Below are positions 22,905 through 40,420 of a DNA stretch of 51,717 nt, one piece after another. Source of the stretch: Elusimicrobiota bacterium (GTDB taxonomy: Bacteria; Elusimicrobiota; Elusimicrobia; UBA1565; UBA9628); the NCBI GenBank assembly GCA_003151975.1, contig PLZD01000059.1, positions 7,380 to 59,096 of the forward strand. The letters run 5' to 3'. The translations under genes and the position numbers were made by a program. The notes below the pieces were generated by a model, which saw nothing but the letters and a program-made list of their open reading frames with translations, had not been told where the DNA came from and did not search any database. Position 1 is the stretch's first letter; every line of letters begins with the position of its first letter.

Positions 22905-24404
22905 GTGAGAGGGTCATGGTTCAAGCGGGATTTGCCTCTGGCGGCCGCGTGCGCCTTTGTCTTATCCGCTCTGATGGTGCCGCTGGCCCTGCACCTTAAA
23001 TTCGACTACGACGAGTGGCTCGAGTTTCACGCGATCTGGCAGGTCGGCGCGGGCCACAAGCCTTACGTCGATTTCTACTTCGCGCGCCCGCCTTACAATT
23101 GGCTGGCTTGGGCGCCGGTCCTCAAGCTGCTGCCCGAGAAGCTCGAGTCGCTCGTGTGGCTGAGGCTCGGGAATCTTGTTTCGTCTTTTCTGGCTCTGGC
23201 GCTTTGGCTTTATGCGGCGCTTACGCGTTCGTCCGACCGGTCATGGAAAACCTGCGCTCTTGCCGCGACGGCGCTCGTCGTCCTGCAAGTCCCCGTGATC
23301 TTCACCTTCGCGCAATTTCGGCCGGACCACTTCGTTTTGGCGACGGCTATGCTCGGCTTGATGCTCATGGAGAATCCTCGGCCGGCGCGTTGGGCCGCCG
23401 CGGGCGCGTTGTTCAGCACGGGCTTGCTGCTGACGCCCAAGCTCATCCTCATCTATGGGGCCGCGGGGCTCCTCTTCGGTTTGGACCTGTGGAAAACAGA
23501 CAGGAAGCAAGCGGCGCGCTGTTTGGGTTCGCTTATCGCAAGTTTCGCCGCGGCGTTTTTGATCGTCAACGCGGCCACGATGGCTTGCGGCATCGACCTC
23601 GGGCCGTATTTCTTCGGCGTGATCGAGCGGCATCTCGCCGCGACGGCGCATTCCGGCTATCGGTTCGGGTTGGCGCGCATGATCATTTTGCGTACGGCTT
23701 ACAATCCGCTCTGGCTGCTCATTTTCGCGGGGGGGACTTACGCTTCGGTCGCGGAATTCCGCGAGCACGGCTGGCGCAGAAACAAATTCATGCTCGTGAT
23801 GCTGATATTCGCGGTGGTTCAGCCTCTGTGGGTCAAATATTTCTACGACCAGTATCTTTACACCGTCCTGCTCGTTTGGAGCCTGCCGCTGGCGCTCTTC
23901 CTTCATCGCGCTGGGAAGTGGCGAAGTCAGTCGGCGCAGGGAGCGCTGGCCGTCCTTCTGCTGGCGGGAGTCTTTCACGCCTTGCCGGAGTTTCTTGATT
24001 TCCGGCGCGACCGGCTCGGCATGGAGGAGGACGTCGCGATCGGCGACAAAATATTGGAGCTGGCTCCCGAGGGCCGGCCCGTCGCGATGCAGCCACCGCG
24101 CCACCCGGTCTTCCGCGAGGACTCGACTTTGTTCATCGACCACTCACTCACGCCCGGAGGAGGTCCCGTGACGGAACAGCTGATGAGCGGCTCCTTGATC
24201 TACGCGAAGAGCTTCAGCTACGAAGGCTATCTCGAGCAGCTCCAGCGCCGTCCGCCGAGCGTGATCTGGGTCAACACGATGTTCACGGGACCCGAATATC
24301 GCGCCGCGATCGACCAATTCACGCGCGTCCTTCATCCGAAGGACTACGAAGCGCGGGACGTCTTCGGCGTCTCGGTCCTGGTCCGACGCGCTACCAGACC
24401 CTAG
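22905..24404 (+). CDS. GT-C (ArnT/PMT-like, GT39-type) membrane glycosyltransferase
   Basis: 499 residues with about 9-11 TM segments. The first periplasmic loop has FDYDEWLEFHAIW and PYVDFYFARPPYNW, the acidic catalytic loop typical of lipid-linked-sugar glycosyltransferases (GT39/ArnT-like). The C-terminal 130 residues form a periplasmic domain. It would move a sugar from a polyprenyl-phosphate donor to lipid, protein or glycan. GTG 22905 is set by the bidirectional promoter. An in-frame start at 22857 lies before it. It overlaps the end of the convergent M13 gene by 14 bp. Confidence 0.82.
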   Translation: MRGSWFKRDLPLAAACAFVLSALMVPLALHLKFDYDEWLEFHAIWQVGAGHKPYVDFYFARPPYNWLAWAPVLKLLPEKLESLVWLRLGNLVSSFLALALWLYAALTRSSDRSWKTCALAATALVVLQVPVIFTFAQFRPDHFVLATAMLGLMLMENPRPARWAAAGALFSTGLLLTPKLILIYGAAGLLFGLDLWKTDRKQAARCLGSLIASFAAAFLIVNAATMACGIDLGPYFFGVIERHLAATAHSGYRFGLARMIILRTAYNPLWLLIFAGGTYASVAEFREHGWRRNKFMLVMLIFAVVQPLWVKYFYDQYLYTVLLVWSLPLALFLHRAGKWRSQSAQGALAVLLLAGVFHALPEFLDFRRDRLGMEEDVAIGDKILELAPEGRPVAMQPPRHPVFREDSTLFIDHSLTPGGGPVTEQLMSGSLIYAKSFSYEGYLEQLQRRPPSVIWVNTMFTGPEYRAAIDQFTRVLHPKDYEARDVFGVSVLVRRATRP

Positions 24405-26892
24405 CGGGCGCCGGGTTGACCATCGCATCCCCGGCCTGGCACGAGAAGGCCTGCGAGAACTCCGACATGTTGGACAGCGTGCCGTCGACGCGAAACTGCG
24501 AGGGCGGGTGCGGGTCGAAGGCCTCGAGGCGCGCGGCCTGGTCGGTCTGGTTTTCGCACCAGATCTGGCCGAAGCCAAGGAAGAATCTCTGCGCCGGCGT
24601 GAAGCCGTCGATCTTCTGCCCGGGCTGGCCGGCCTGCGCCTTCATGTAGGCGGCGTACGCGAGGCGAATGCCGCCGTTATCCGCCGTATTCTCGCCCAAG
24701 GTCAGCGCGCCGTTGACGTGCACGTCTTTCTTGGGATCGCCGCCCGGGTCCTTGGCGATGACGAACTTCGAGTACTGGTCGACGAGTCCTTTCGAGCGCT
24801 TCTCGAAGGCGTCTTGATCGGCCGGAGTCCACCAGTTGTTCAGGTTGCCCTTGCCGTCGTACTGATGGCCCTGGTCGTCGAAGCCGTGCGTCAGCTCGTG
24901 GCCCTCGACGGCGCCGATCGCGCCGTAGTTGGCCGCCGGATCGGCCTTGTCATCGTAGAACGGCTTCTGAAGTATGCCCGCGGGAAAGTTGATGTTGTTG
25001 TTGGCGGGGTCGTAGTACGCGTTGACGGTGGGCGGCGTCATGCCCCACTCCTTGCGGTCGGCGGGCTTGCCGATCTTGGCCAAGTCGCGCTTGGTCTCCA
25101 TTGCGGCCGAGCGGTCGATGTTGCCCAAGGCGTCGGTCTTGGAGATCTTGAGCTTAGAGTAGTCGCGCCACTTGTCGGGGTAGCCGATCTTGTTGGTCAC
25201 CTCGGAGAGCTTCTCGAGCGCCTTCTTCTGGGTCGGCGGGCTCATCCAGGCGACGCCCTTGATGTCGTCCTGCATCGCAGATTCGATCTCGCCGATCATC
25301 GCGAGAGCCGCGTCCTTGTCCTTGCCGTCGAAAGCCTGCTTGACGTAGTCGCGGCCCAAGGCGTCGCCCATGATGCCGTCGGCTTGGCCCACGCAGCGCT
25401 TCCAGCGCGGCTTCTGCTGCTTCTGCCCCGCGAGGCGCTTGCCCCAGAACGCGAAGTTCTCGCCGTCGAAGGCCGACGAGAGCATCGAGGCGCGGCCGTG
25501 GATGACCTGCCAGCGCAGGTACGATTTCCACGCCGAGAGCGGCGTGGAGGTCAGCACCGCATCGAGTTTCTGGAAGTACGGCATCGTGTTAACGTCGATC
25601 TGGACCATCTTGGGCGCCCCGAGGGCCTTGAAGTACGCCGCCCAATCGAAGGAAGGGGTGAGCGCCTCGAACTTGGAAAGCGGCGTCTTGGCGTGCGTCA
25701 GGTTCGGATCTCGGAGGCTGACGCGGTCCATGGAGATCGTCGCCAGGGCGGTTTCGACCGCGACGACTGCGCCTGACTCGGTCGCAGCTTCCTTTTTCGT
25801 GTCTCCCGCAAGCTCGAACATCTTCGCGGCGTGCTCGCCGTAGGCCTTCAGGTCGTCCTTGTGCGAGTCCTCGAGGTAATAATCCCGGTCGGGCAGCGAG
25901 TAACCGCCTTGGCCGATCGCGGCGATGTTCATCGTCGCGTTCTCGAAGTCCTGCTCCGAGCCGAAGCCGAAGATTCCGCCGAAACCCTTCGCGTGCATCT
26001 TGCCGAGCTGGGCCGCGAGGCCTTTGAGGCTTGAAAGGCTGCCGACTTTGGCGAGATCGGGCTTCAAGGGGGCCGAGCCTTTTTTCTCGATGGCCTTTTG
26101 GTCCATGCAGGCCGCGTAGATCTCGCCGAGTTTTTTCTCATCCGCGTCCTTCGCCGTGGCCGCGGTGGAGGCTTTCTCGAGGATGTCCTTGAGGATGTTC
26201 TGGTTGCGCTCGTGCAGCTCGGAGAATCGGCCCCAGCTCGACTGGTCGGACGGGATCGGATTGTTCTTGAGCCACGAGCCGCAGGCGTATTGATAGAAAT
26301 CGGCGCAGGGACTGACCGCGTGGTTGATGGCGGAAAGCTCGACTCCTGAACTCGGAGCCTTTGCCAGGGCGGGAGCGGCCCCGGGCTTCCCGGGCGCTCC
26401 GGCGGGCGGCGCGGCCACGACGGGACCTGCGACCGAGCCTGCGGCATGGTTCTGGTCGTAGAATTTGTTCTGATCGCCGACGACAAGCGCTGCCGGGAGG
26501 CTCGCCGAGACGGTCTTGGCGACTTCGTCGGCGGAGATCTTGCGCGCGGCGGCGGAGCCGTCGCCGGCGTTGGTCAGCGCGGTTTGAATCGTCAGCTTGT
26601 CGCCCCACGTCCCGGTCAGTGAATCTAAAGTTTCCTTCCTTCTGTTCGTGTCGACCTTGGCCGACCAGCCGGCCGCGGTGATCTTGACGACGGGTCCGGG
26701 CAGGACCTCGCGCGTCGAGGGCTCCGCAAGAAGCTCGCCGATGGCGAGCTGGGCGGCCTTGGCCTTGGCGTCGGTGTCGGGATTCTGGGACGGCGAGAGC
26801 TTGAGAGTGACGGTGATCTGGGGCGCTGCGGCAAAGGAAGAAACGGCGAGTCCTGCGGCCAGCATGAGGGTTAAGGGGGCGTTGATTTTCAT
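24391..26892 (-). CDS. Exported M13 (neprilysin/PepO-like) zinc metallopeptidase
   Basis: 833 residues, longer than the usual 650-700 because of an N-terminal extension of about 160 residues after the signal peptide (MKINAPLTLMLAAGLAVSSF). The extension contains a SIMPL-like beta/alpha pattern. The M13 part begins near SGVELSAINHAVSPCADFYQYACG. The active site is complete: HELTH (665-669), then GENTADNGG with the third zinc ligand, plus NNINFPAGIL upstream. It cleaves oligopeptides outside the cytoplasm. A promoter at 27059-27064 drives a transcript starting at a purine-type riboswitch 95 nt upstream. A second -10, TATCAT (26905-26910), sits 12 nt before the ATG and could give a riboswitch-free message. 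Confidence 0.94.
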   Translation of the reverse strand: MKINAPLTLMLAAGLAVSSFAAAPQITVTLKLSPSQNPDTDAKAKAAQLAIGELLAEPSTREVLPGPVVKITAAGWSAKVDTNRRKETLDSLTGTWGDKLTIQTALTNAGDGSAAARKISADEVAKTVSASLPAALVVGDQNKFYDQNHAAGSVAGPVVAAPPAGAPGKPGAAPALAKAPSSGVELSAINHAVSPCADFYQYACGSWLKNNPIPSDQSSWGRFSELHERNQNILKDILEKASTAATAKDADEKKLGEIYAACMDQKAIEKKGSAPLKPDLAKVGSLSSLKGLAAQLGKMHAKGFGGIFGFGSEQDFENATMNIAAIGQGGYSLPDRDYYLEDSHKDDLKAYGEHAAKMFELAGDTKKEAATESGAVVAVETALATISMDRVSLRDPNLTHAKTPLSKFEALTPSFDWAAYFKALGAPKMVQIDVNTMPYFQKLDAVLTSTPLSAWKSYLRWQVIHGRASMLSSAFDGENFAFWGKRLAGQKQQKPRWKRCVGQADGIMGDALGRDYVKQAFDGKDKDAALAMIGEIESAMQDDIKGVAWMSPPTQKKALEKLSEVTNKIGYPDKWRDYSKLKISKTDALGNIDRSAAMETKRDLAKIGKPADRKEWGMTPPTVNAYYDPANNNINFPAGILQKPFYDDKADPAANYGAIGAVEGHELTHGFDDQGHQYDGKGNLNNWWTPADQDAFEKRSKGLVDQYSKFVIAKDPGGDPKKDVHVNGALTLGENTADNGGIRLAYAAYMKAQAGQPGQKIDGFTPAQRFFLGFGQIWCENQTDQAARLEAFDPHPPSQFRVDGTLSNMSEFSQAFSCQAGDAMVNPAPARVW

Positions 26893-26979: not shown

Positions 26980-26986
26980 ATAGTTC

Positions 26987-27051
26987 TCCTGGTGACGCCG
27001 GCTTGGGCCCGGCGGTGGAGGCTCCCCGACCTGATCTCGAGGATTACAGGA
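26987..27051 (-). promoter_or_regulatory. Purine-family riboswitch, probable 2'-dG-II class, copy before M13 peptidase
   Basis: Three-way junction in 65 nt. P1 is TCCTG/CAGGA and P2 is TCCTCGA/TCGGGGA with loop GATCAGG. P3 is CGCCGG/CCGGCG with loop GCCCAAG. J1/2 is TAA, J2/3 is GCCTCCAC and J3/1 is TCAC. Positions 22-72 align without gaps to the B. subtilis xpt guanine aptamer (L2 32-38, J2/3 46-53). G37 and G38 of the loop-loop contact are kept and C's are available in L3. U47 and U51 are both C, the changes linked to 2'-deoxyguanosine binding. A TATACT box ends 7 nt before P1, so the transcript begins at the aptamer. The family fold is well supported. The exact ligand is inferred. Confidence 0.8.
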
Positions 27052-27058
27052 TCGTTCA

Positions 27059-27064: not shown

Positions 27065-27098
27065 GCGGAACGCGGCAGGCCTTCCAGGAGCGACGGGC

Positions 27099-28208
27099 CT
27101 AGGCGCGAGTAGGACTTTGGTCCTGGGCGGCCGGCAGGCTGAACGAGAACCGCGAGCCCGAGTTCTGGCTGCTCTCTATGTCGAGGCGGGCGCCGTGACT
27201 GGCGAGCATGTCGCGCGCGGTCTTGAGGCCGAGCCCGAAGCCCGCGGCCATCTTCTTTCCCCGGGAAGAGCGAGTGAAGCCTTTGAGGGCTTCCTCTTGT
27301 TCCTCGGGGCTCATGCCGATGCCGTTATCCGAGATCGAGAAAAGCACGGCGATCGGCGGCTCGCCCGAGGGCTTGAGCTCGACCGCGACGCGTCCGCCGG
27401 GGCGCGTGTACTTGATCGCGTTGCCGATGAGATTGGTCAGGACGAGGTGCAGGGCGTCGGGGTCGGCGCGGACAAAGAGGGGCCGGGGCGGAAGTTTCAC
27501 CGACATTTCCATCTTTTTCTGCCGCGCCGAGGACTCGATCACGGCCAGCGCGGAGCGCGCCAGTTCCGCGGCGTCGACCCGCCGGATCTCGAGCGCGAAG
27601 TGCCCAGATTCCATGCGCGCCTCGTTAAGCAGGTTCTCGACGTCGCGCTTGAGGCTTGTGATGTTGCGGTGCAGGACGTCGTACATCTCCGCTTGATGAG
27701 GCTTGGGCTCGTCGCCCATCTCCTCTTCGAGCACGAAGATGGCCATGCCCATCGTGGTCAACGCGTTGCTGACCTCGTGGCTGACGATGGAGAGCATGTC
27801 GCTCTTTGTCTGCGCCCGAGCCTTCTCGAGGACGATGTCGGATTCCAGCATCGAGACCAGCAGAGCGACGGCCAAAAAAATGGAGAGGCAGAGCGCGGCG
27901 TTGATCAATGAGAGCTGGAGAGGCGTTAGATTCCAATCGGTCAGCCACAGCTGGTCCGTGTAGAAATTCCAGTAGTCGGACGCGAACCAAGTCGCCGCCG
28001 CGAGAATCGAAACGGAAAACCCGGCGAGCCGCCCGCAATAGCGCGCCGCGAAAGCGACGGGGATGATGTAGAAAAAATCGAAGTTGTATTCCTTGCTCGA
28101 TCCGTGATGGAACAGGCCCACGAGCAATAGAATCAGGAGGCCGAGCCCCAGCGAGACGCGGGGCGAGCGGTCGAGCCAATCATCCAGGGCAAGCGTAAAT
28201 TTCGGCAT
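27099..28208 (-). CDS. Membrane sensor histidine kinase (paralogue A)
   Basis: 369 residues. Three or four TM segments (about 19-120) with little periplasmic sequence form a MASE-like input. HisKA follows with H144 in SIVSHEVSNAL. The HATPase domain has an N-box LIGNAIKYT, G1 DNGIGM and G2 GFGLGLKTA. The phosphotransfer and ATP sites are complete. No response regulator is adjacent. The protein shares layout and the SHE-x-x-NA H-box with the kinase at 49400. It lies 53 nt downstream of the MurU-like gene on the same strand, so it may be co-transcribed with the cell-wall recycling pair. Confidence 0.92.
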   Translation of the reverse strand: MPKFTLALDDWLDRSPRVSLGLGLLILLLVGLFHHGSSKEYNFDFFYIIPVAFAARYCGRLAGFSVSILAAATWFASDYWNFYTDQLWLTDWNLTPLQLSLINAALCLSIFLAVALLVSMLESDIVLEKARAQTKSDMLSIVSHEVSNALTTMGMAIFVLEEEMGDEPKPHQAEMYDVLHRNITSLKRDVENLLNEARMESGHFALEIRRVDAAELARSALAVIESSARQKKMEMSVKLPPRPLFVRADPDALHLVLTNLIGNAIKYTRPGGRVAVELKPSGEPPIAVLFSISDNGIGMSPEEQEEALKGFTRSSRGKKMAAGFGLGLKTARDMLASHGARLDIESSQNSGSRFSFSLPAAQDQSPTRA

Positions 28209-34212: not shown

Positions 34213-35253
34213 ATGCGACCCCTCGCACCGCGCATTGCGCTGTTAGCCGTTTCCTGCCTTTGGATTCCTGCCTCCTGCTTCGCCTGGTCCCACGACGAGC
34301 ACAGCGCCATCGCCGACCGCGCGATGACGTTGCTCCAGCAGCAGAACTCGCCCGCGGTGACGGCCATCGCGCAGATCCTTCCCGCGGGCGCGACTCTGGC
34401 GTCGATCGCGCCTTGCGCCGACGACATCCGCCACCCTCCGAAGGGCGCCGGTGCGACCACGACTTGCGGCGGCCTGACTTTGGCGTGGAACTCGGCGAGC
34501 GAACCCTGGCATTTCATCGACGAGCCGGTCTCCGAGAATCCGGCGAGCGCCTCCGACATGCAGAAATATTGCGCCGGAGGCAATTGCATCATCGGCGCGT
34601 TTCATAACCAGCTGCAAATACTGACGGGAAAGGCGCCGGGCGACAAGGCCACGGCCCTGATGTTCGTCGTGCATCTCGTCGGCGACGCGCACCAGCCTCT
34701 GCATTGCGCCACCCAGCTGGTCCTGGATTCCAGCGGCAATCCTCAGCCCGATCCCAAGCGCCCGGGAAAAATGCTCAGCGACGGCGGCGGCAACGCCAAG
34801 GCGGTCTCGATCCCGGGCACGACCCCGAAGTATCCGCTTGAAATGCACTCGCTTTGGGATCAAGACATGCAGGCCGCGGACGTCCCGGGCATAGACTTGT
34901 CGGGCGCTTCTTGGCAAAGCCTCGATCCGGGAACGACGCCTGACGCCGTGGTCGCCCAGGCCGCGTTCGAGAGCTTCGGCATCGCCCGGACGGTGATCTA
35001 CCCGAACTACACCGATTCAAACGCCGCGAACAATCCCGACGCCATGCCGCTCGCCTCCGACGGCGTCACGCGGATCGTGACGCCGAAGTATCAGTCGGAC
35101 ATGAGGGGGCTCGCCGAGCTGCGCCTGCAGTTGGCCGCGGTCCGCCTGGCGGCCATACTCGACAACGCGTTGGCCGGCGCGCCCCAGACGGGGTCTGCGC
35201 CCGCGCAAAGTCTGGGCTCGGGAAAGGGAGCGGCGGTCAGGACGCCATGGTGA
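34213..35253 (+). CDS. Secreted S1/P1 nuclease (copy 1)
   Basis: 346 residues with a signal peptide ending FA, so that mature protein begins with W25, whose main chain is a zinc ligand in this family. Other ligands are visible: H30, a D in APCADDIRH, H in PWHFIDEP, H and D in VVHLVGDAHQPLHC, and H/D in MHSLWDQD. S1/P1 enzymes cut single-stranded DNA and RNA and have 3'-nucleotidase activity. A 60-residue insertion (DPKRPGKM..) sits before the DGGGNAKAV segment. The second copy follows after 4 nt, so they form an operon under the leaderless promoter at 34201. Confidence 0.94.
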   Translation: MRPLAPRIALLAVSCLWIPASCFAWSHDEHSAIADRAMTLLQQQNSPAVTAIAQILPAGATLASIAPCADDIRHPPKGAGATTTCGGLTLAWNSASEPWHFIDEPVSENPASASDMQKYCAGGNCIIGAFHNQLQILTGKAPGDKATALMFVVHLVGDAHQPLHCATQLVLDSSGNPQPDPKRPGKMLSDGGGNAKAVSIPGTTPKYPLEMHSLWDQDMQAADVPGIDLSGASWQSLDPGTTPDAVVAQAAFESFGIARTVIYPNYTDSNAANNPDAMPLASDGVTRIVTPKYQSDMRGLAELRLQLAAVRLAAILDNALAGAPQTGSAPAQSLGSGKGAAVRTPW

Positions 35254-35257
35254 AACT

Positions 35258-36253
35258 ATGAAAATCGCTACCAAGTCGGGGCGAGCGGCGCTGGCGGCGT
35301 TGGTGCTGTTGTGGCCGCAGCTCCTGATGGCTTGGTCGGAAAACGGCCATCGCATCGTCGGCCAGATCGCGCAGGATTTGTTGACGAAGGATCCCGGCGG
35401 CGCCAACGCCATCGCCGGCATCAAGGACGTGATGGGCGCGAGCTACGGCCCGAACGCCCTGGCCAACATCGCGCCCTGCGCGGATTTCGTGCGCCACGCA
35501 AACGAGGACGGCTCGGCGGTCCCCGATGCGGGGGGCACGATCAACTGCGGCGGGCTGACCATCCCCGTCGAACCCGAGAGCGCGCCCTGGCATTTCGTCG
35601 ACGTGCCGATTACCGAGTCGGCCGACTCGGTCGGGAATTTTTGCGGCGCGAAGGGCTGCGTGATCAGCGCGATCTCAAACGCCGTCTCCGTCCTGCAGAC
35701 CAGCGCCGTGCAGGCCGACCGGCAGAAGCAGTTGATGTATCTCGTGCACTTCGTGGGCGATGCGCATCAGCCTCTGCATTGCGCCTATGCCGTCCTTTCG
35801 GACGGCAGTCCCGACCGCGGCGGCAATTGCGAGCACATCCGCTACGGCGGCAAGTCGATGGCCTTCCACGCGTTGTGGGATCATCGGCTCAACGCGGCGG
35901 ATGCGCCCAATTGGCAAGCGGAGGCGCAGCGGTTGGAGGGCGGCGCTTCGGTTCCGACCGTCACGAACGCGGGCGCTGTCGCATTGCAGGCGGCCACCGA
36001 AAGCTTCCAGGACGGCCACGACGTCATGAACGAGTTCCTGCAGCTTCCCAACGCCGCAGCCCAGCAGTGTACGAGGACTCCGGGCCAGCGCATTCCATCG
36101 GTCGTCCTGCCGGACGGTTATGAGGGCCAGTATGCCGCCAAGATCGACGAGCGCCTGCAGATGGCGGGCGCTCGGCTGGCGGGGCTCTTGAAGCTCGCCT
36201 TCGGCGGCAACGGCCAGGCGCCGCGGATTATCTCAAGGGCTGTGGCGCCTTAA
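35258..36253 (+). CDS. Secreted S1/P1 nuclease (copy 2)
   Basis: 331 residues; same family as the upstream gene but clearly diverged. The signal peptide ends MA before W26. Ligand motifs are H31 (WSENGHRIV), APCADFVRH, PWHFVDVPI, LVHFVGDAHQPLHC, DRGGNCEHI and FHALWDH. All nine zinc-ligand positions appear to be present, so it should be active on nucleic acids outside the cytoplasm. Six cysteines suggest disulphides. Its 3' end overlaps the convergent PLC-like gene by 26 bp. Confidence 0.94.
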   Translation: MKIATKSGRAALAALVLLWPQLLMAWSENGHRIVGQIAQDLLTKDPGGANAIAGIKDVMGASYGPNALANIAPCADFVRHANEDGSAVPDAGGTINCGGLTIPVEPESAPWHFVDVPITESADSVGNFCGAKGCVISAISNAVSVLQTSAVQADRQKQLMYLVHFVGDAHQPLHCAYAVLSDGSPDRGGNCEHIRYGGKSMAFHALWDHRLNAADAPNWQAEAQRLEGGASVPTVTNAGAVALQAATESFQDGHDVMNEFLQLPNAAAQQCTRTPGQRIPSVVLPDGYEGQYAAKIDERLQMAGARLAGLLKLAFGGNGQAPRIISRAVAP

Positions 36254-37610
36254 GCCCGGCCAACGCCGGGAGCGAGAACCGCAGGTACTTCTCCGGGGAG
36301 CGGCCGACGTTTCCCACGGCATCGGACGCCGACACTCGGAATCCATAGAGTCCTCCGCCGGCGGGCGCGGCGAACTCCGTAGAGGCTCCCTGAGGCTTCG
36401 CGTCGACGGTCCGCCAATCCGTCCAAGAATTTCCGTTCCAGCGCCGGTACTCGAACCGGTAGCTTCTCCGGTCGACGCCGCTTTGCGCGTCAACGGCTGA
36501 GGCATGCAGGATCACGCGCTGGATCGAGGTCTGGTCCGGGCTCTTGGGATCGGAGGAATTCAGGGAATCCAGCTTGACCTCGGGCGCCGTGTGATCGATC
36601 TGCTTGAAAAAGTAGACGAACAGCGCGGCGACCCGTTTGTAGGCCAACGGCATCAAGACGCGGCCCTCTTCCTTGAGCTGCGCCTCCTTGAAGTGGGTCT
36701 TGCGGCGTCGCCCGCGATCCGCATCGCCGTCGACTCCCAGAAGGCCGGGGCCGTTGCCCGCGTCATAGTGGTGCGTGATCTCTCCGGTCTTGCGGAAAAT
36801 CTCATAGAGCGTCGAAAATGATTCGACGGGCCCTTCCGGCACTTGAAGCCACTCGGCGTAGTGGTCTCCCATGTAGGACTCGTACATGTCGGAGTTGTGG
36901 AAGGGGTGCGCCCAGAGCAGGTTGTGCGCGGGAACGGTCAAGTCTTCGAGGAGATGCGCGACGTGGCCGAGATACCAGTAGGCCTTGGCCTTGTCTCCTT
37001 TCCTATATAAAGACAGGACGCCGAGGCCCTTGGTCCCGCGGTGCGCGCCGGAATTGTCGCTCCAGTCCTTATCGTACTTGCCGTTGATGCCGTAGCCGCC
37101 GGACCAATACTTGTGCGCCCTGTTCACGGAACTGTCGAAGCCGAGCCAGCCGGCGTAGTCGCCCTTTTTGTAGTTCCAGAAATGCCGGTTGAACGACATG
37201 ATGTCGTTGAAGGGGTTGAGGTTGGCCTTGTCCTCTTCGTAGGAGCCGGAGATCACGGTGTTGTGGCCTTCCCCGGGCTTGTCGCCCGAGATGCCGCCGA
37301 TGAAGCTCTCCAGTTCTCCGCCCTCGTATTGGGCCGCGTACATCTCGTAGGCCGTGCGCGTGATGTGCATGTGCGCCACAGTGCTGTGCTCGGCTTCGAC
37401 GGGCTTGTTCGGGTCGTCGGTCGGCTCCGACGGCGGCTCGTCGGCCGGAGCGGCGGCCACCGGCGGCAGCGCCGGCGCGCCTTCGTCCTTGACCTGCGCC
37501 CAATCGGACTTGAAATAGTTTTCGCGCAGGGATGACCCGCTCGTCTGGATCGCGGCGAAAGAAACGGTCGAGAGGAGAAGGGCCAGGGCGGAGAGGGCGA
37601 TTTTTTTCAT
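36228..37610 (-). CDS. Exported zinc-dependent phospholipase C-like protein with C-terminal Ig-like domain
   Basis: 460 residues with a signal peptide (MKKIALSALALLLSTVSFA). Residues about 75-345 show the zinc phospholipase C / S1-P1 fold. It has HMHITRTAYEMY with an early His, LGHVAHLLEDLTVPAH with the central zinc cluster (H..H...ED), then HYAEWLQ. Residues about 350-455 are an Ig/FN3-like domain (SAVDAQSGVDRRSYRFEY), often used to bind surfaces. Probable substrate: phospholipid or another phosphodiester. Shine-Dalgarno AAGGAGG lies 9 nt before the ATG, in contrast to the leaderless neighbours. Confidence 0.85.
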   Translation of the reverse strand: MKKIALSALALLLSTVSFAAIQTSGSSLRENYFKSDWAQVKDEGAPALPPVAAAPADEPPSEPTDDPNKPVEAEHSTVAHMHITRTAYEMYAAQYEGGELESFIGGISGDKPGEGHNTVISGSYEEDKANLNPFNDIMSFNRHFWNYKKGDYAGWLGFDSSVNRAHKYWSGGYGINGKYDKDWSDNSGAHRGTKGLGVLSLYRKGDKAKAYWYLGHVAHLLEDLTVPAHNLLWAHPFHNSDMYESYMGDHYAEWLQVPEGPVESFSTLYEIFRKTGEITHHYDAGNGPGLLGVDGDADRGRRRKTHFKEAQLKEEGRVLMPLAYKRVAALFVYFFKQIDHTAPEVKLDSLNSSDPKSPDQTSIQRVILHASAVDAQSGVDRRSYRFEYRRWNGNSWTDWRTVDAKPQGASTEFAAPAGGGLYGFRVSASDAVGNVGRSPEKYLRFSLPALAGLKAPQPLR

Positions 37611-37630: not shown

Positions 37631-38896
37631 TTATGGGACCATCGGGTCATCGGTGAAGAGCTGGCCGGCGATGGCGCGCGCGGCTCTTTCCGCGGCGGTG
37701 ACCTTGTGGCTCAGAATGCGCCGGCTTTGCCGCAGATCGGGCTCGAAGAGCTTGGCGTTGACCGTGGACGCCAGGCGGGCGTCGGTGGCGACGATGTTGA
37801 GCTCGTCGTTGTGGACCAGGCTTCGGGGATCGAGATTCGAGGAGCCGAAGGTGGTCCAATAGTCGTCGATGACCGCGACCTTCTCGTGCGCCATGCGGTT
37901 CTGGTATTCGTAGACCTCGGCGCCCGCCGAGAGCAGGTCGGGATAGAAGGCGCGCGAGGCGTCCTGCATGAGCTTGATGTTGTTCTTCGCCGGCAAAACG
38001 ATTTGGACTTTCACTCCGCGGCGCGCGGCGGTCTCCAGAGCCTTAATGACGCCCGCGTCCACGAAGTAGGGGTCCGCGATGCGGATGAGCTTCTGCGAGG
38101 TCGCAAACGCCGCGAGATACGCGCGCCGGATGTTCTGATCGTGGTCGGCGCCTAGGTGCGCGACGACGCGCGTCTGCGCGCCGTCGGGCTGGTCGGCCGA
38201 GGGGGGCAGCAGGTTCTCACCCGGCTCGGTCGTTCCGCCCACCGCTTGCCACTGCGAGAGAAACGCCTTCTGGAGCAGGGCCACCGCGGGTCCCCGGATC
38301 AACGACTGCTGATCGTGCCATTGCTCTTGATAAGTCTCGCCGATGTTCATGCCGCCGGTAAATCCGATGAGCCCGTCGACGACCATGACTTTGCGGTGGT
38401 CCAGGTGCGTGTCGAGCGGCGGCGCGGGGCGCACCAGCACATGCACGCCTTCGCCGCGCAGATAGCCGAGGAGCGCTTTGACGTCTTGGTGGTCCGTGTT
38501 CGAGCCCTTGGCGTCGAGCAGCACGCGCACGCGCACGCCCCCAGCGGCTTTTTTCGCCAGCACGCGGGCCAGCGACCAGCCGATCTTGTCGGCTTGATAT
38601 TGGAAGACTTCGATGTGGATCGAGTTGCGGGCGCCCGAGACCGCGGCCAGCGCCGGAGCCATGACCTCGCGGTCGACGAGAAAATCGATCGAGTTCTTGC
38701 CCGCGTTTTGTGCGCCCGCGGATGCGTCGATGTAGGCGAGATATCCAAGCCAGTCGCCGGGCGTGAACACGGGCTTGGCCATAACCGCAATGGTCGGCGC
38801 GCCGCGTTGGAACTTGAAGGCGACCGGGCTCGGCGCCCAGTCTTGCGCCGACGCCGTCGCGCCGATCACGAGCAAAAAGGAGGCGATCATCCTCAC
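37631..38896 (-). CDS. Exported PLD-superfamily protein (cardiolipin synthase-like, two HKD motifs)
   Basis: 421 residues with a short signal peptide (MRMIASFLLVIGATASAQ). HKD motif 1 is HRKVMVVD with GFTGGMNIG after it, and motif 2 is HEKVAVID with FGSSNLDPRS. This pairing matches cardiolipin synthase-type PLDs, but such enzymes are normally membrane-bound and cytoplasm-facing. Export suggests a secreted phospholipase D or nuclease role. GTG 38896 lies 6 nt after TAGACT (38903-38908, minus). ATG 38890 is also possible. The PLC-like gene follows after 20 nt but has its own Shine-Dalgarno. Confidence 0.87.
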   Translation of the reverse strand: MRMIASFLLVIGATASAQDWAPSPVAFKFQRGAPTIAVMAKPVFTPGDWLGYLAYIDASAGAQNAGKNSIDFLVDREVMAPALAAVSGARNSIHIEVFQYQADKIGWSLARVLAKKAAGGVRVRVLLDAKGSNTDHQDVKALLGYLRGEGVHVLVRPAPPLDTHLDHRKVMVVDGLIGFTGGMNIGETYQEQWHDQQSLIRGPAVALLQKAFLSQWQAVGGTTEPGENLLPPSADQPDGAQTRVVAHLGADHDQNIRRAYLAAFATSQKLIRIADPYFVDAGVIKALETAARRGVKVQIVLPAKNNIKLMQDASRAFYPDLLSAGAEVYEYQNRMAHEKVAVIDDYWTTFGSSNLDPRSLVHNDELNIVATDARLASTVNAKLFEPDLRQSRRILSHKVTAAERAARAIAGQLFTDDPMVP

Positions 38897-38938: not shown

Positions 38939-39002
38939 TAGGTCGTTAGGCCTATGTCATTCTAGGCCCTTAGGGACTTGCGGCCTGGGCCTTTTAGGCT
39001 AT
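38939..39002 (+). repeat. Degenerate 8-nt tandem array over the riboswitch promoter
   Basis: TAGG occurs at 38939, 38947, 38963, 38971 and 38995: spacings 8, 16, 8 and 24, all multiples of 8. In phase the octamers are TAGGTCGT, TAGGCCTA, (TGTCATTC), TAGGCCCT, TAGGGACT, (TGCGGCCT), (GGGCCTTT) and TAGGCTAT. Consensus TAGGCCTT. The last unit overlaps the -10 box, so a protein bound here would directly affect transcription. Confidence 0.65.
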
Positions 39003-39005
39003 CCT
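38978..39005 (+). promoter_or_regulatory. Promoter of the riboswitch-HKD nuclease transcript
   Basis: -35 TTGCGG (38978-38983), 16-bp spacer, -10 TATCCT (39000-39005). The aptamer P1 begins 7 nt later at 39013, which should be the transcription start. The -35 resembles that at 31160. Confidence 0.65.
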
Positions 39006-39012
39006 CATGACA

Positions 39013-39077
39013 TCCTGTAATCCTCGAGATCAGGTCGAGGAGCATCCACCGCCGGGCCTAATCCGGCGTCACCAGGG
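39013..39077 (+). promoter_or_regulatory. Purine-family riboswitch, probable 2'-dG-II class, copy before HKD nuclease
   Basis: Same 65-nt architecture as the minus-strand copy at 26987-27051. P1 is TCCTG/CAGGG and P2 is TCCTCGA/TCGAGGA with loop GATCAGG. P3 is CGCCGG/CCGGCG with loop GCCTAAT. J2/3 is GCATCCAC and J3/1 is TCAC. The copies differ at only five positions. Two are in stems and keep pairing (P2 U-A versus U-G, P1 U-G versus U-A); the rest fall in J2/3 and L3. In xpt numbering positions 47 and 51 are C and 74 is C, as expected for a guanine-base ligand with a deoxyribose. J3/1 is two nt longer than in xpt. Ligand assignment is inferred. Confidence 0.82.
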
Positions 39078-39099
39078 GATAAAGGCCGTCGTAGGGCCG

Positions 39100-39148
39100 G
39101 CTTCTCTGGCAAACCATGAGAAGCTTCTCTGAGGAGGACTATCTCATG
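39100..39148 (+). other. Possible translational expression platform before the HKD nuclease
   Basis: Hairpin GCTTCTCTGG-CAAA-CCA-t-GAGAAGC (39100-39124). Its 3' part CATGAG (39115-39120) is also complementary to CTCATG (39143-39148), which contains the start codon and would enclose the Shine-Dalgarno GAGGAGG (39131-39137). The two folds exclude each other, as expected of a riboswitch that gates translation. This is a reading of the sequence, not a calculated fold. Confidence 0.45.
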
Positions 39149-40420
39149 AAGAAGATGCAACCGGTCGGGAAGCTCGCCGCAGCCGCACTTCTCGCCTTGC
39201 TGGTTCCCCAAGCAACGATGGCGGCCGACATGTCGGCGTTCCTGGAGAATCTCGATCTCGGCAAGAGCGGGGTCTTCTCGGATATCTCGACGGTCCGCGC
39301 GCCCAAAGCGCCGTGGAGCCCCTCGCATACTCCCGCGCGTCCGCCGCAGCCCAAGCCCGCCCCCAATCCCGGCGGCGGCTCGAGCGCCGGAAGCGTTTCG
39401 CTCAACGGGACGACTCTGCCGAGCTTCATCTTCACGGGCCGCGGCGGCGACGTCTCGGCGCAAGTCGCGGCCGCGATAGACGCGTCCCGAATCTCGGTGA
39501 ACGTGGCGCTCTACACGCTGACGCTTCCTAATGTGGCCGACTCGCTGGTGCGCGCCAAACAGCGCGGCGTGGCCGTGCAGGTCGTCTACGATTTCGGTCA
39601 CTCATCGAGCGCGGGCGGCGCGAGCGTCGGTTCGCAGCCGAGCGCGGGAGCTTCCGAGAAGATCGGCCAGCTGCTCTCCGCCGGCATACCCGTTCGCGTC
39701 CTGCGCGGCTCGGGCCCCTACGGCATCATGCACAATAAATTCGCCGTCATCGACGGCCAGCTCGTCGAGACCGGTTCGTTCAACTGGACGACGGCGGCCG
39801 ACACGAAGAACCACGAGAACGCGTTGTTTCGCACGGACGGAAATCTGATCGCCGACTATCAAGCGTACTTCGATTGGATGTGGCGCCAGGCCGGTCAGGC
39901 CGGCGGCGGCTCGGCTCCCGGACCGACGGGCACCCCGCCGTCCTGCGCCGACGGCCCGTCGGCTCTCGGCCGGACATGGCCCGAATGTTCGTTCTCTCCC
40001 GGCGGCCCCACCGAGGCGCTCATCGCGCAGGCCATCGGCTTGGCCAAGACGCGCGTGCACATCGCGATGTTCAGCTTCACCTCGCCGTCGATCGTGCAGG
40101 CGATCATCGCCGCGAATAACCGCGGCGTCGACGTTATGCTCGTCTTCGACCGCCTGCAGGCGAAGACCGAGGCGGGCCTTAAACCCCTGCAGGACGCGGG
40201 CGTGCCTTATCGCTTGAACTCGGGACTCGGCGGCAGCGGCGGCGTGCTGCACGACAAGTTCGGGCTCTTTGACGATCTGCTCGAGACCGGCTCGTTCAAC
40301 TATACGACCAACGCGAGCCAGAACAACTTCGAGAACGCGTTTTTCTCATCGGCTTCGTCGGACCTGGACGGCTACGAGTCGGAGTTCCAGGCGATCTACG
40401 CGGAGGGATCGAACTCCTAG
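39146..40420 (+). CDS. Secreted tandem-HKD PLD-superfamily nuclease/phospholipase
   Basis: 424 residues: signal peptide (MKKMQPVGKLAAAALLALLV), a Pro/Gly linker (about 60-90), then two PLD repeats. Repeat 1 has HNKFAVID followed by TGSFNWT, and repeat 2 has HDKFGLFD followed by TGSFNYT. The MHNKFxxxD...GSFNWT form is that of the Nuc-like endonuclease branch rather than classic lipid-cutting PLD, so DNA is a likely substrate. The two repeats form one active site in such enzymes. Expression is probably gated by the 2'-deoxyguanosine-type riboswitch upstream. ATG 39146 has an ideal Shine-Dalgarno. The preceding in-frame ATG at 39116 lies inside the leader hairpin. Confidence 0.88.
   Translation: MKKMQPVGKLAAAALLALLVPQATMAADMSAFLENLDLGKSGVFSDISTVRAPKAPWSPSHTPARPPQPKPAPNPGGGSSAGSVSLNGTTLPSFIFTGRGGDVSAQVAAAIDASRISVNVALYTLTLPNVADSLVRAKQRGVAVQVVYDFGHSSSAGGASVGSQPSAGASEKIGQLLSAGIPVRVLRGSGPYGIMHNKFAVIDGQLVETGSFNWTTAADTKNHENALFRTDGNLIADYQAYFDWMWRQAGQAGGGSAPGPTGTPPSCADGPSALGRTWPECSFSPGGPTEALIAQAIGLAKTRVHIAMFSFTSPSIVQAIIAANNRGVDVMLVFDRLQAKTEAGLKPLQDAGVPYRLNSGLGGSGGVLHDKFGLFDDLLETGSFNYTTNASQNNFENAFFSSASSDLDGYESEFQAIYAEGSNS

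What the first reader, a model, noticed from the sequence alone, without database searches (positions are those of the whole stretch)
39013..39077. 2'-deoxyguanosine-type riboswitch before a secreted tandem-HKD nuclease
A three-way junction (P1 5 bp, P2 7 bp, P3 6 bp) matches the purine riboswitch at nucleotide level. Its L2 GATCAGG corresponds to GATATGG, J1/2 TAATC is identical to xpt, and J2/3 lines up without gaps. Positions 47 and 51 are C instead of U, the change that converts guanine to 2'-dG recognition in known relatives. Elongated J3/1 (UCAC) is a local feature. The 2'-dG-II class was described from metagenomic sequences; I recall phospholipase D-type genes among its neighbours but cannot check that here. 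The gene controlled is a Nuc-like enzyme that could release deoxynucleotides, so the ligand and the target would be in one circuit.
Basis: partly seen in the sequence, partly recalled or inferred. Interest (0 to 1): 0.92.

Follow-up and report, generated by a model that had tools for sequence, protein, structure and literature searches.

The report
2'-deoxyguanosine riboswitch before secreted nuclease-like gene
The RNA is a genuine copy of a known riboswitch class that senses a DNA building block; here it very probably switches ON a secreted DNA-cutting-type enzyme, and six more copies in the same genome sit mostly in front of other secreted enzymes, suggesting the cell uses DNA debris as a cue to make digestive enzymes.

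Summary
Confirmed. Window 39010-39080 (+) is a 2'-dG-II riboswitch (Rfam RF03165, 71.7 bits, gathering 60, E 1.6e-16); the ordinary purine model finds nothing in the genome. A second copy (27054-26984, -) precedes an M13 peptidase; the genome holds seven, and 88 of 341 genomes of its phylum (probably Elusimicrobiota) hold one or more above cut-off. The class and its association with phospholipase D-type genes are already published, so the RNA is a new member of a known kind.

What seems new, within the papers I could read: (1) Direction. In 132 of 175 loci the 3' strand of P1 is the 5' arm of a terminator (about 23 in shuffles), with three-strand compensatory changes; other copies hide the Shine-Dalgarno in the aptamer. 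Ligand should turn genes ON. The window copy is predicted to be a translational ON switch. (2) Context. 148 of 176 aptamers follow a sigma70-type promoter with a tandem dyad, which also precedes many genes without riboswitch, mostly secreted peptidases, lysozyme-like and nuclease genes. The riboswitch is thus a second layer on part of an exoenzyme regulon.

Ligand binding, ON direction and nuclease activity are untested at the bench. Long J3/1 is a class hallmark, not a local feature.

The parts
38939..38982 (+). Tandem dyad element (TAGGTCGTTAGGCCTA 38939-38954, 8-nt gap, TAGGCCCTTAGGGACT 38963-38978), candidate transcription-factor operator
   Evidence: PWM 37 bits; model R1 27.6 bits, E 1.1e-5 in the own genome; same element upstream of 148/176 aptamers
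38978..39005 (+). Predicted sigma70-type promoter: -35 TTGCGG (38978-38983), 16-nt spacer, -10 TATCCT (39000-39005); start of transcription expected near the first P1 base
   Evidence: TANNNT at spacer 15-19 in 120 of 148 loci versus 7 of 148 at a control spacing; coordinates
39010..39080 (+). 2'-dG-II aptamer: P1 39013-39017/39073-39077, P2 39021-39027/39035-39041, J2/3 GCAUCCAC 39042-39049 (C51 = 39047), P3 39050-39055/39063-39068, J3/1 39069-39072
   Evidence: RF03165, 71.7 bits, E 1.6e-16
39072..39109 (+). Anti-P1 helix: CCAGGGGA (39072-39079) with UUCUCUGG (39102-39109); excludes P1
   Evidence: Formed in the MFE fold; positional counterpart of the anti-P1 terminators in 132/175 loci
39100..39150 (+). 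Predicted translational platform: GCUUCUC (39100-39106) can pair GAGAAGC (39118-39124) only when P1 is formed; otherwise 39116-39150 folds over SD GAGGAGG (39131-39137) and AUG 39146
   Evidence: Start codon unpaired 0.02 free, 0.77 with the aptamer forced; SD 0.40 to 0.58
39146..40420 (+). Secreted tandem-HKD (PLDc_2 x2) protein, 424 aa, nuclease-like, signal peptide MKKMQPVGKLAAAALLALLVPQATMA
   Evidence: PF13091 E 2.4e-46, two stretches; NucT models below cut-off; PDB 1BYR E 2.2e-20
26984..27054 (-). Second 2'-dG-II aptamer
   Evidence: RF03165, 61.9 bits, E 2.1e-13
27082..27124 (-). Tandem dyad element of the second copy
   Evidence: Model R1 28.5 bits, E 5.8e-6 (converted to window coordinates)
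24391..26892 (-). Secreted M13 (neprilysin/PepO-type) peptidase controlled by the second copy
   Evidence: PF05649 E 1.3e-124, PF01431 E 5e-69

Best explanation
Window 39010-39080 is a 2'-dG-II riboswitch, transcribed from a sigma70-type promoter that starts at about the first base of P1 and carries a tandem-dyad element just upstream of its -35 box. With no ligand, the 3' strand of P1 is taken by a downstream anti-P1 helix, and the Shine-Dalgarno and start codon of the next gene are folded away. With 2'-deoxyguanosine bound, P1 is held, the released strand GCUUCUC pairs with GAGAAGC instead, and the start codon is exposed: a translational ON switch for a secreted tandem-HKD nuclease-like enzyme. 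Across the genome and its relatives the same aptamer, mostly with an anti-P1 terminator, is layered on part of a larger regulon of secreted enzymes marked by the dyad element. Shown: class membership, promoter and dyad conservation, mutually exclusive helices. Inferred: ligand in vivo, ON direction, nuclease activity, and the purpose (2'-dG from degraded DNA as a cue to make digestive exoenzymes).
For: Rfam match over the gathering score; seven copies over the cut-off in the own genome; 88 of 341 phylum genomes over the cut-off; RF00167 finds none in the own genome; C51 in 165/176 relatives. ON: anti-P1 terminator in 132/175 loci versus 23 in shuffles; position 3 of the P1 3' strand changes G to C in 13 loci with matching changes in both partner strands; SD complementary over 10-12 nt to AUCCACCUCC of J2/3-P3 in about ten loci; window folds. 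Context: dyad at PWM > 8 in 148/176, best control 7.0; promoter spacing; operator-only genes encode S8, M14, trypsin-like, S46, C1, C11 peptidases, GH25, amidase, SLT and endonuclease I.
Against: No ligand binding or expression data. In the window copy the free-state ensemble is about 10 kcal/mol below the aptamer-forced one, so the switch would have to be kinetic or helped by tertiary contacts that the model leaves out. The window copy has no terminator; its platform rests on one sequence's predicted fold. Own-genome targets such as GTP cyclohydrolase II and a receiver domain are not exoenzymes, and many class relatives have radical SAM genes downstream. The signal-peptide heuristic gives 61% for riboswitch genes against 43% for nearby control genes, a modest excess. 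NucT models match the HKD protein only below their cut-offs.
Confidence: 0.78

Rival explanations
1. Ordinary guanine (or other nucleobase) riboswitch that happens to resemble 2'-dG-II.
For: Same three-way-junction clan; a few distant phylum-level matches (G335-G338) carry the guanine-type J2/3 GUUUCUAC.
Against: Those distant matches score below the cut-off. All seven own-genome copies are over the 2dG-II cut-off, RF00167 finds none of them, and the window copy has C51 and the long J3/1.
Confidence: 0.06
2. OFF switch: 2'-dG represses the nuclease and the other targets by feedback, as in most guanine riboswitches.
For: Feedback repression would fit a product-sensing circuit in principle.
Against: In 132/175 loci the terminator uses the P1 3' strand as its 5' arm with three-strand compensation, so ligand-bound P1 prevents termination; the SD-complement type also predicts ON.
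Confidence: 0.07
3. The HKD protein is a lipid-cleaving phospholipase D or has another role, so it does not feed 2'-dG back to the switch; the riboswitch reports intracellular deoxynucleoside status.
For: PF13091 covers lipases and nucleases; PDB matches include mitochondrial cardiolipin hydrolase (MitoPLD); targets such as GTP cyclohydrolase II and peptidases do not make 2'-dG.
Against: The best PDB match is Nuc endonuclease 1BYR and the best NCBIfam models are NucT; other class members sit before ComEC-like metallo-beta-lactamase proteins, and the published target list has ComEC and endonuclease I (PMC8872408).
Confidence: 0.3

Closest known systems
2'-dG-II riboswitch, Rfam RF03165
   Same: Full-length model match over the gathering score, C51, long J3/1, GG/CC loop contact, downstream PLD-type gene as in the published list (receiver domain, phospholipase D, ComEC, endonuclease I; PMC8872408)
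   Different: Host appears to be Elusimicrobiota, whereas PMC8872408 names Bacteroidetes; seven copies in one genome; target set extended to S8, M13 and C1 peptidases, a phosphatase, radical SAM and peptide-binding proteins
2'-dG-III riboswitch (PMC9295807)
   Same: Nucleoside sensor on the purine scaffold, predicted genetic ON switch that activates a degradative gene (nucleoside hydrolase)
   Different: Different J2/3, found in Firmicutes, binds guanosine about as well
Adenine/guanine riboswitch expression platforms of the anti-P1 terminator type (e.g. pbuE; own knowledge)
   Same: P1 3' strand is the 5' arm of the terminator, so ligand gives ON
   Different: Other ligand, other targets
Nuc endonuclease (PDB 1BYR) / NucT
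   Same: HKD phosphodiesterase fold, secreted
   Different: Two HKD domains in one chain; scores below the NucT equivalog cut-offs

Membership tests
2'-dG-II riboswitch (RF03165) | Covariance-model score at or above the curated gathering score | tested here: met
   71.7 and 61.9 bits against 60
2'-dG-II riboswitch (RF03165) | Three-way junction with P1, P2, P3 and L2-L3 GG/CC contact | tested here: met
   Full model alignment; L2 GATCAGG, L3 GCCTAAT
2'-dG-II riboswitch (RF03165) | C at position 51, which contacts the nucleoside | tested here: met
   C at 39047; 165 of 176 relatives
2'-dG-II riboswitch (RF03165) | Lengthened J3/1, exclusive to class II | tested here: met
   UCAC, 39069-39072; class hallmark per PMC8872408
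2'-dG-II riboswitch (RF03165) | Preferential binding of 2'-deoxyguanosine | not testable with these tools
   Needs in-line probing or ITC
Guanine/purine riboswitch (RF00167) | Match to the RF00167 covariance model | tested here: not met
   No match at E <= 0.001 in the own genome
Genetic ON riboswitch | Ligand-stabilised P1 excludes a terminator or sequestering helix | tested here: met
   132/175 loci with anti-P1 terminator, covariation, window fold; sequence-level only
Nuc/NucT nuclease | PLDc_2 domain with HxK(x)4D motif | tested here: met
   Two domains, HNKFAVID and HDKFGLFD
Nuc/NucT nuclease | NCBIfam NucT equivalog cut-off | tested here: not met
   Best 88.8 bits against 297

The most novel reading that the evidence does not exclude
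A large branch of Elusimicrobiota runs a two-layer digestion programme: an unidentified regulator binds a tandem TAGGYC-N4-GRCCYA element at dozens of promoters of secreted peptidases, lysozymes and nucleases, and 2'-dG ON riboswitches on part of these genes use a DNA breakdown product as the signal that dead or lysed cells are at hand. This would supply the missing physiological purpose of the 2'-dG-II class.
Probability: 0.45. Interest if true: 0.72.

Novelty: new member of a known kind. Interest (0 to 1): 0.52.

Why it matters
2'-dG-II was defined by structure and binding, but its biological purpose has been unclear from a handful of target genes. The locus and its relatives give a direction (ON), a promoter context and a broad list of secreted targets, which makes the question 'why sense free deoxyguanosine?' directly testable with reporters. 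The same data expose an uncharacterised operator and regulon in a little-studied phylum.

Tried and rejected
Chance structure: rejected by Rfam E-values and 88 genomes with the element. Guanine riboswitch: RF00167 has no hit; only the distant f29 matches look guanine-like. OFF switch: rejected by terminator geometry. Dyad as a genome-wide repeat or uptake sequence: too few sites (dozens, promoter-placed). My first palindrome pattern for it was one base too long and found only three hits, so a sequence model was built instead. The pattern scan of genome contigs had a gap one base too long, so it found a single real 2dG-II locus (L039, uncultured Elusimicrobia, confirmed) and says nothing about other phyla. 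16S comparison failed: no 16S gene in either genome. The original 2017 and 2019 papers on 2'-dG-II are not held, so an earlier statement of ON direction cannot be excluded.

Full report
OBSERVATION. cmscan of the window against Rfam 15 gives two matches over the gathering score, both RF03165 (2dG-II): 39010-39080 (+), 71.7 bits, E 1.6e-16, and 26984-27054 (-), 61.9 bits. C51 is the class signature (165 of 176 relatives). Position 47 is U or C throughout the class (99 and 73), so it does not set specificity. The elongated J3/1 is described as exclusive to class II (PMC8872408). The plain purine model RF00167 finds nothing in the genome.

DISTRIBUTION. The own genome (4.64 Mb, 96% complete) has seven copies, all over the cut-off. 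In its phylum 97 of 341 genomes match at E <= 0.001 and 88 over the cut-off. A named genome, 'uncultured Elusimicrobia' (L039, handle G341), holds five matches, three over the cut-off. One of its riboswitch-controlled proteins is 57% identical to the counterpart in a genome of the window's own class. I infer that the phylum is Elusimicrobiota; there is no 16S gene to prove it. The distant f29 matches have J2/3 GUUUCUAC or GUAUCUAC, score below the cut-off and lack the promoter element, so they are probably guanine-type.

TARGETS. Own genome: secreted DSP-type phosphatase, GTP cyclohydrolase II, lone receiver domain, tandem HKD (window), subtilisin, secreted HNH-like protein (motif only, no Pfam match) and M13 peptidase. 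In 163 downstream proteins of the own genome and its relatives Pfam finds metallo-beta-lactamase (ComEC-like) in 18, radical SAM in 19, peptide-binding SBP_bac_5 in 9, plus PLD, receiver, papain and other domains. The published list (receiver domain, phospholipase D, ComEC, endonuclease I; PMC8872408) fits this picture. ORFs were chosen by script, so some downstream genes may be wrong.

EXPRESSION PLATFORM. Of 175 loci with enough sequence, 132 have a hairpin followed by a T-rich stretch whose 5' arm is the 3' strand of P1, against a mean of 23 in shuffled downstream sequence (L005 is a likely false positive among them). P1 and the terminator compete for the same strand, so ligand-stabilised P1 should allow read-through. 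At position 3 of the P1 3' strand, 13 loci have C for G with compensation in the P1 5' strand, and 12 have it in the terminator. P1 5' letters equal terminator 3' letters in 63% of cells, against 54% (maximum 57.5%) under permutation. Of the loci without terminator, about ten have a Shine-Dalgarno stretch complementary over 10-12 nt to the aptamer's AUCCACCUCC, a second ON design.

WINDOW COPY. No terminator. The free fold has CCAGGGGA:UUCUCUGG instead of P1 and hides the AUG at 39146 (unpaired 0.02); with the aptamer forced, GCUUCUC:GAGAAGC forms and the AUG opens (0.77). This is a thermodynamic prediction for one sequence without tertiary contacts.

PROMOTER AND DYAD. 148 of 176 aptamers have a rigid tandem dyad (two TAGGYC-N4-GRCCYA boxes, 24-nt period) upstream, median 25 bits; the best downstream control is 7.0. 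A -10 TANNNT lies 15-19 nt (94 of them at 17) from the -35 hexamer at the end of the dyad in 120 of 148, against 7 at a control spacing. A sequence model finds many sites in the own genome and in relatives, including genomes where no riboswitch was found. Genes behind sites without riboswitch mostly start with a signal peptide (34 of 41 by a crude rule; 104 of 170 riboswitch genes; 43 of 100 control genes) and include S8, M14, trypsin-like, S46, C1 and C11 peptidases, GH25, amidase, SLT, GH75 and endonuclease I. Since some sites are counted on both strands, site numbers are approximate.

MECHANISM. A two-layer control is the simplest reading: a regulator at the dyad, and 2'-dG as a second input on some genes. 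2'-dG is a product of DNA breakdown, so the ligand may report digested DNA. This last step is inference; peptidase, phosphatase and GTP cyclohydrolase targets argue for a general cue rather than a closed nuclease loop.

NOVELTY. The class, its ligand and its PLD association are known. Direction, dyad element and exoenzyme context are not in the papers I could read; the two primary 2'-dG-II papers were not available.

Noticed in passing
window 34213-36253 (+): Two tandem secreted S1/P1-type nuclease genes (the second matches PF02265 at E 1.5e-40; the first is alike by eye) without a riboswitch of their own, close to the riboswitch-controlled HKD gene.
   Followed up: partly
window 37631-38896 (-): A cardiolipin-synthase-like PLD gene is divergent from the riboswitch-controlled HKD gene; the tandem dyad lies in the gap between the two and could serve both.
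   Followed up: partly
window 36228-37610 (-): A secreted 460-aa protein without a Pfam or NCBIfam match; by eye it resembles zinc-dependent phospholipase C-type proteins.
   Followed up: no
L197-L256 (dyad sites in own genome and relatives): Tandem TAGGYC-N4-GRCCYA dyads with a 24-nt period mark many promoters of secreted hydrolases, also in genomes where no 2'-dG-II riboswitch was found; the regulator is unknown.
   Followed up: partly
L002 (G000:C27:132906-132976): A 2'-dG-II riboswitch stands directly before GTP cyclohydrolase II (RibA), an unexpected target for a deoxyguanosine sensor.
   Followed up: no
L011, L013, L015-L020, L033, L150, L153, L160, L169: In another family of the same class the riboswitch often precedes radical SAM genes, often with a short ORF in between; two YcaO matches occur among the downstream proteins.
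   Followed up: no
L121-L125 (G335-G338): Below-threshold RF03165 matches with guanine-type J2/3 GUUUCUAC or GUAUCUAC, without the dyad; probably guanine riboswitches of a distant branch of the phylum.
   Followed up: partly
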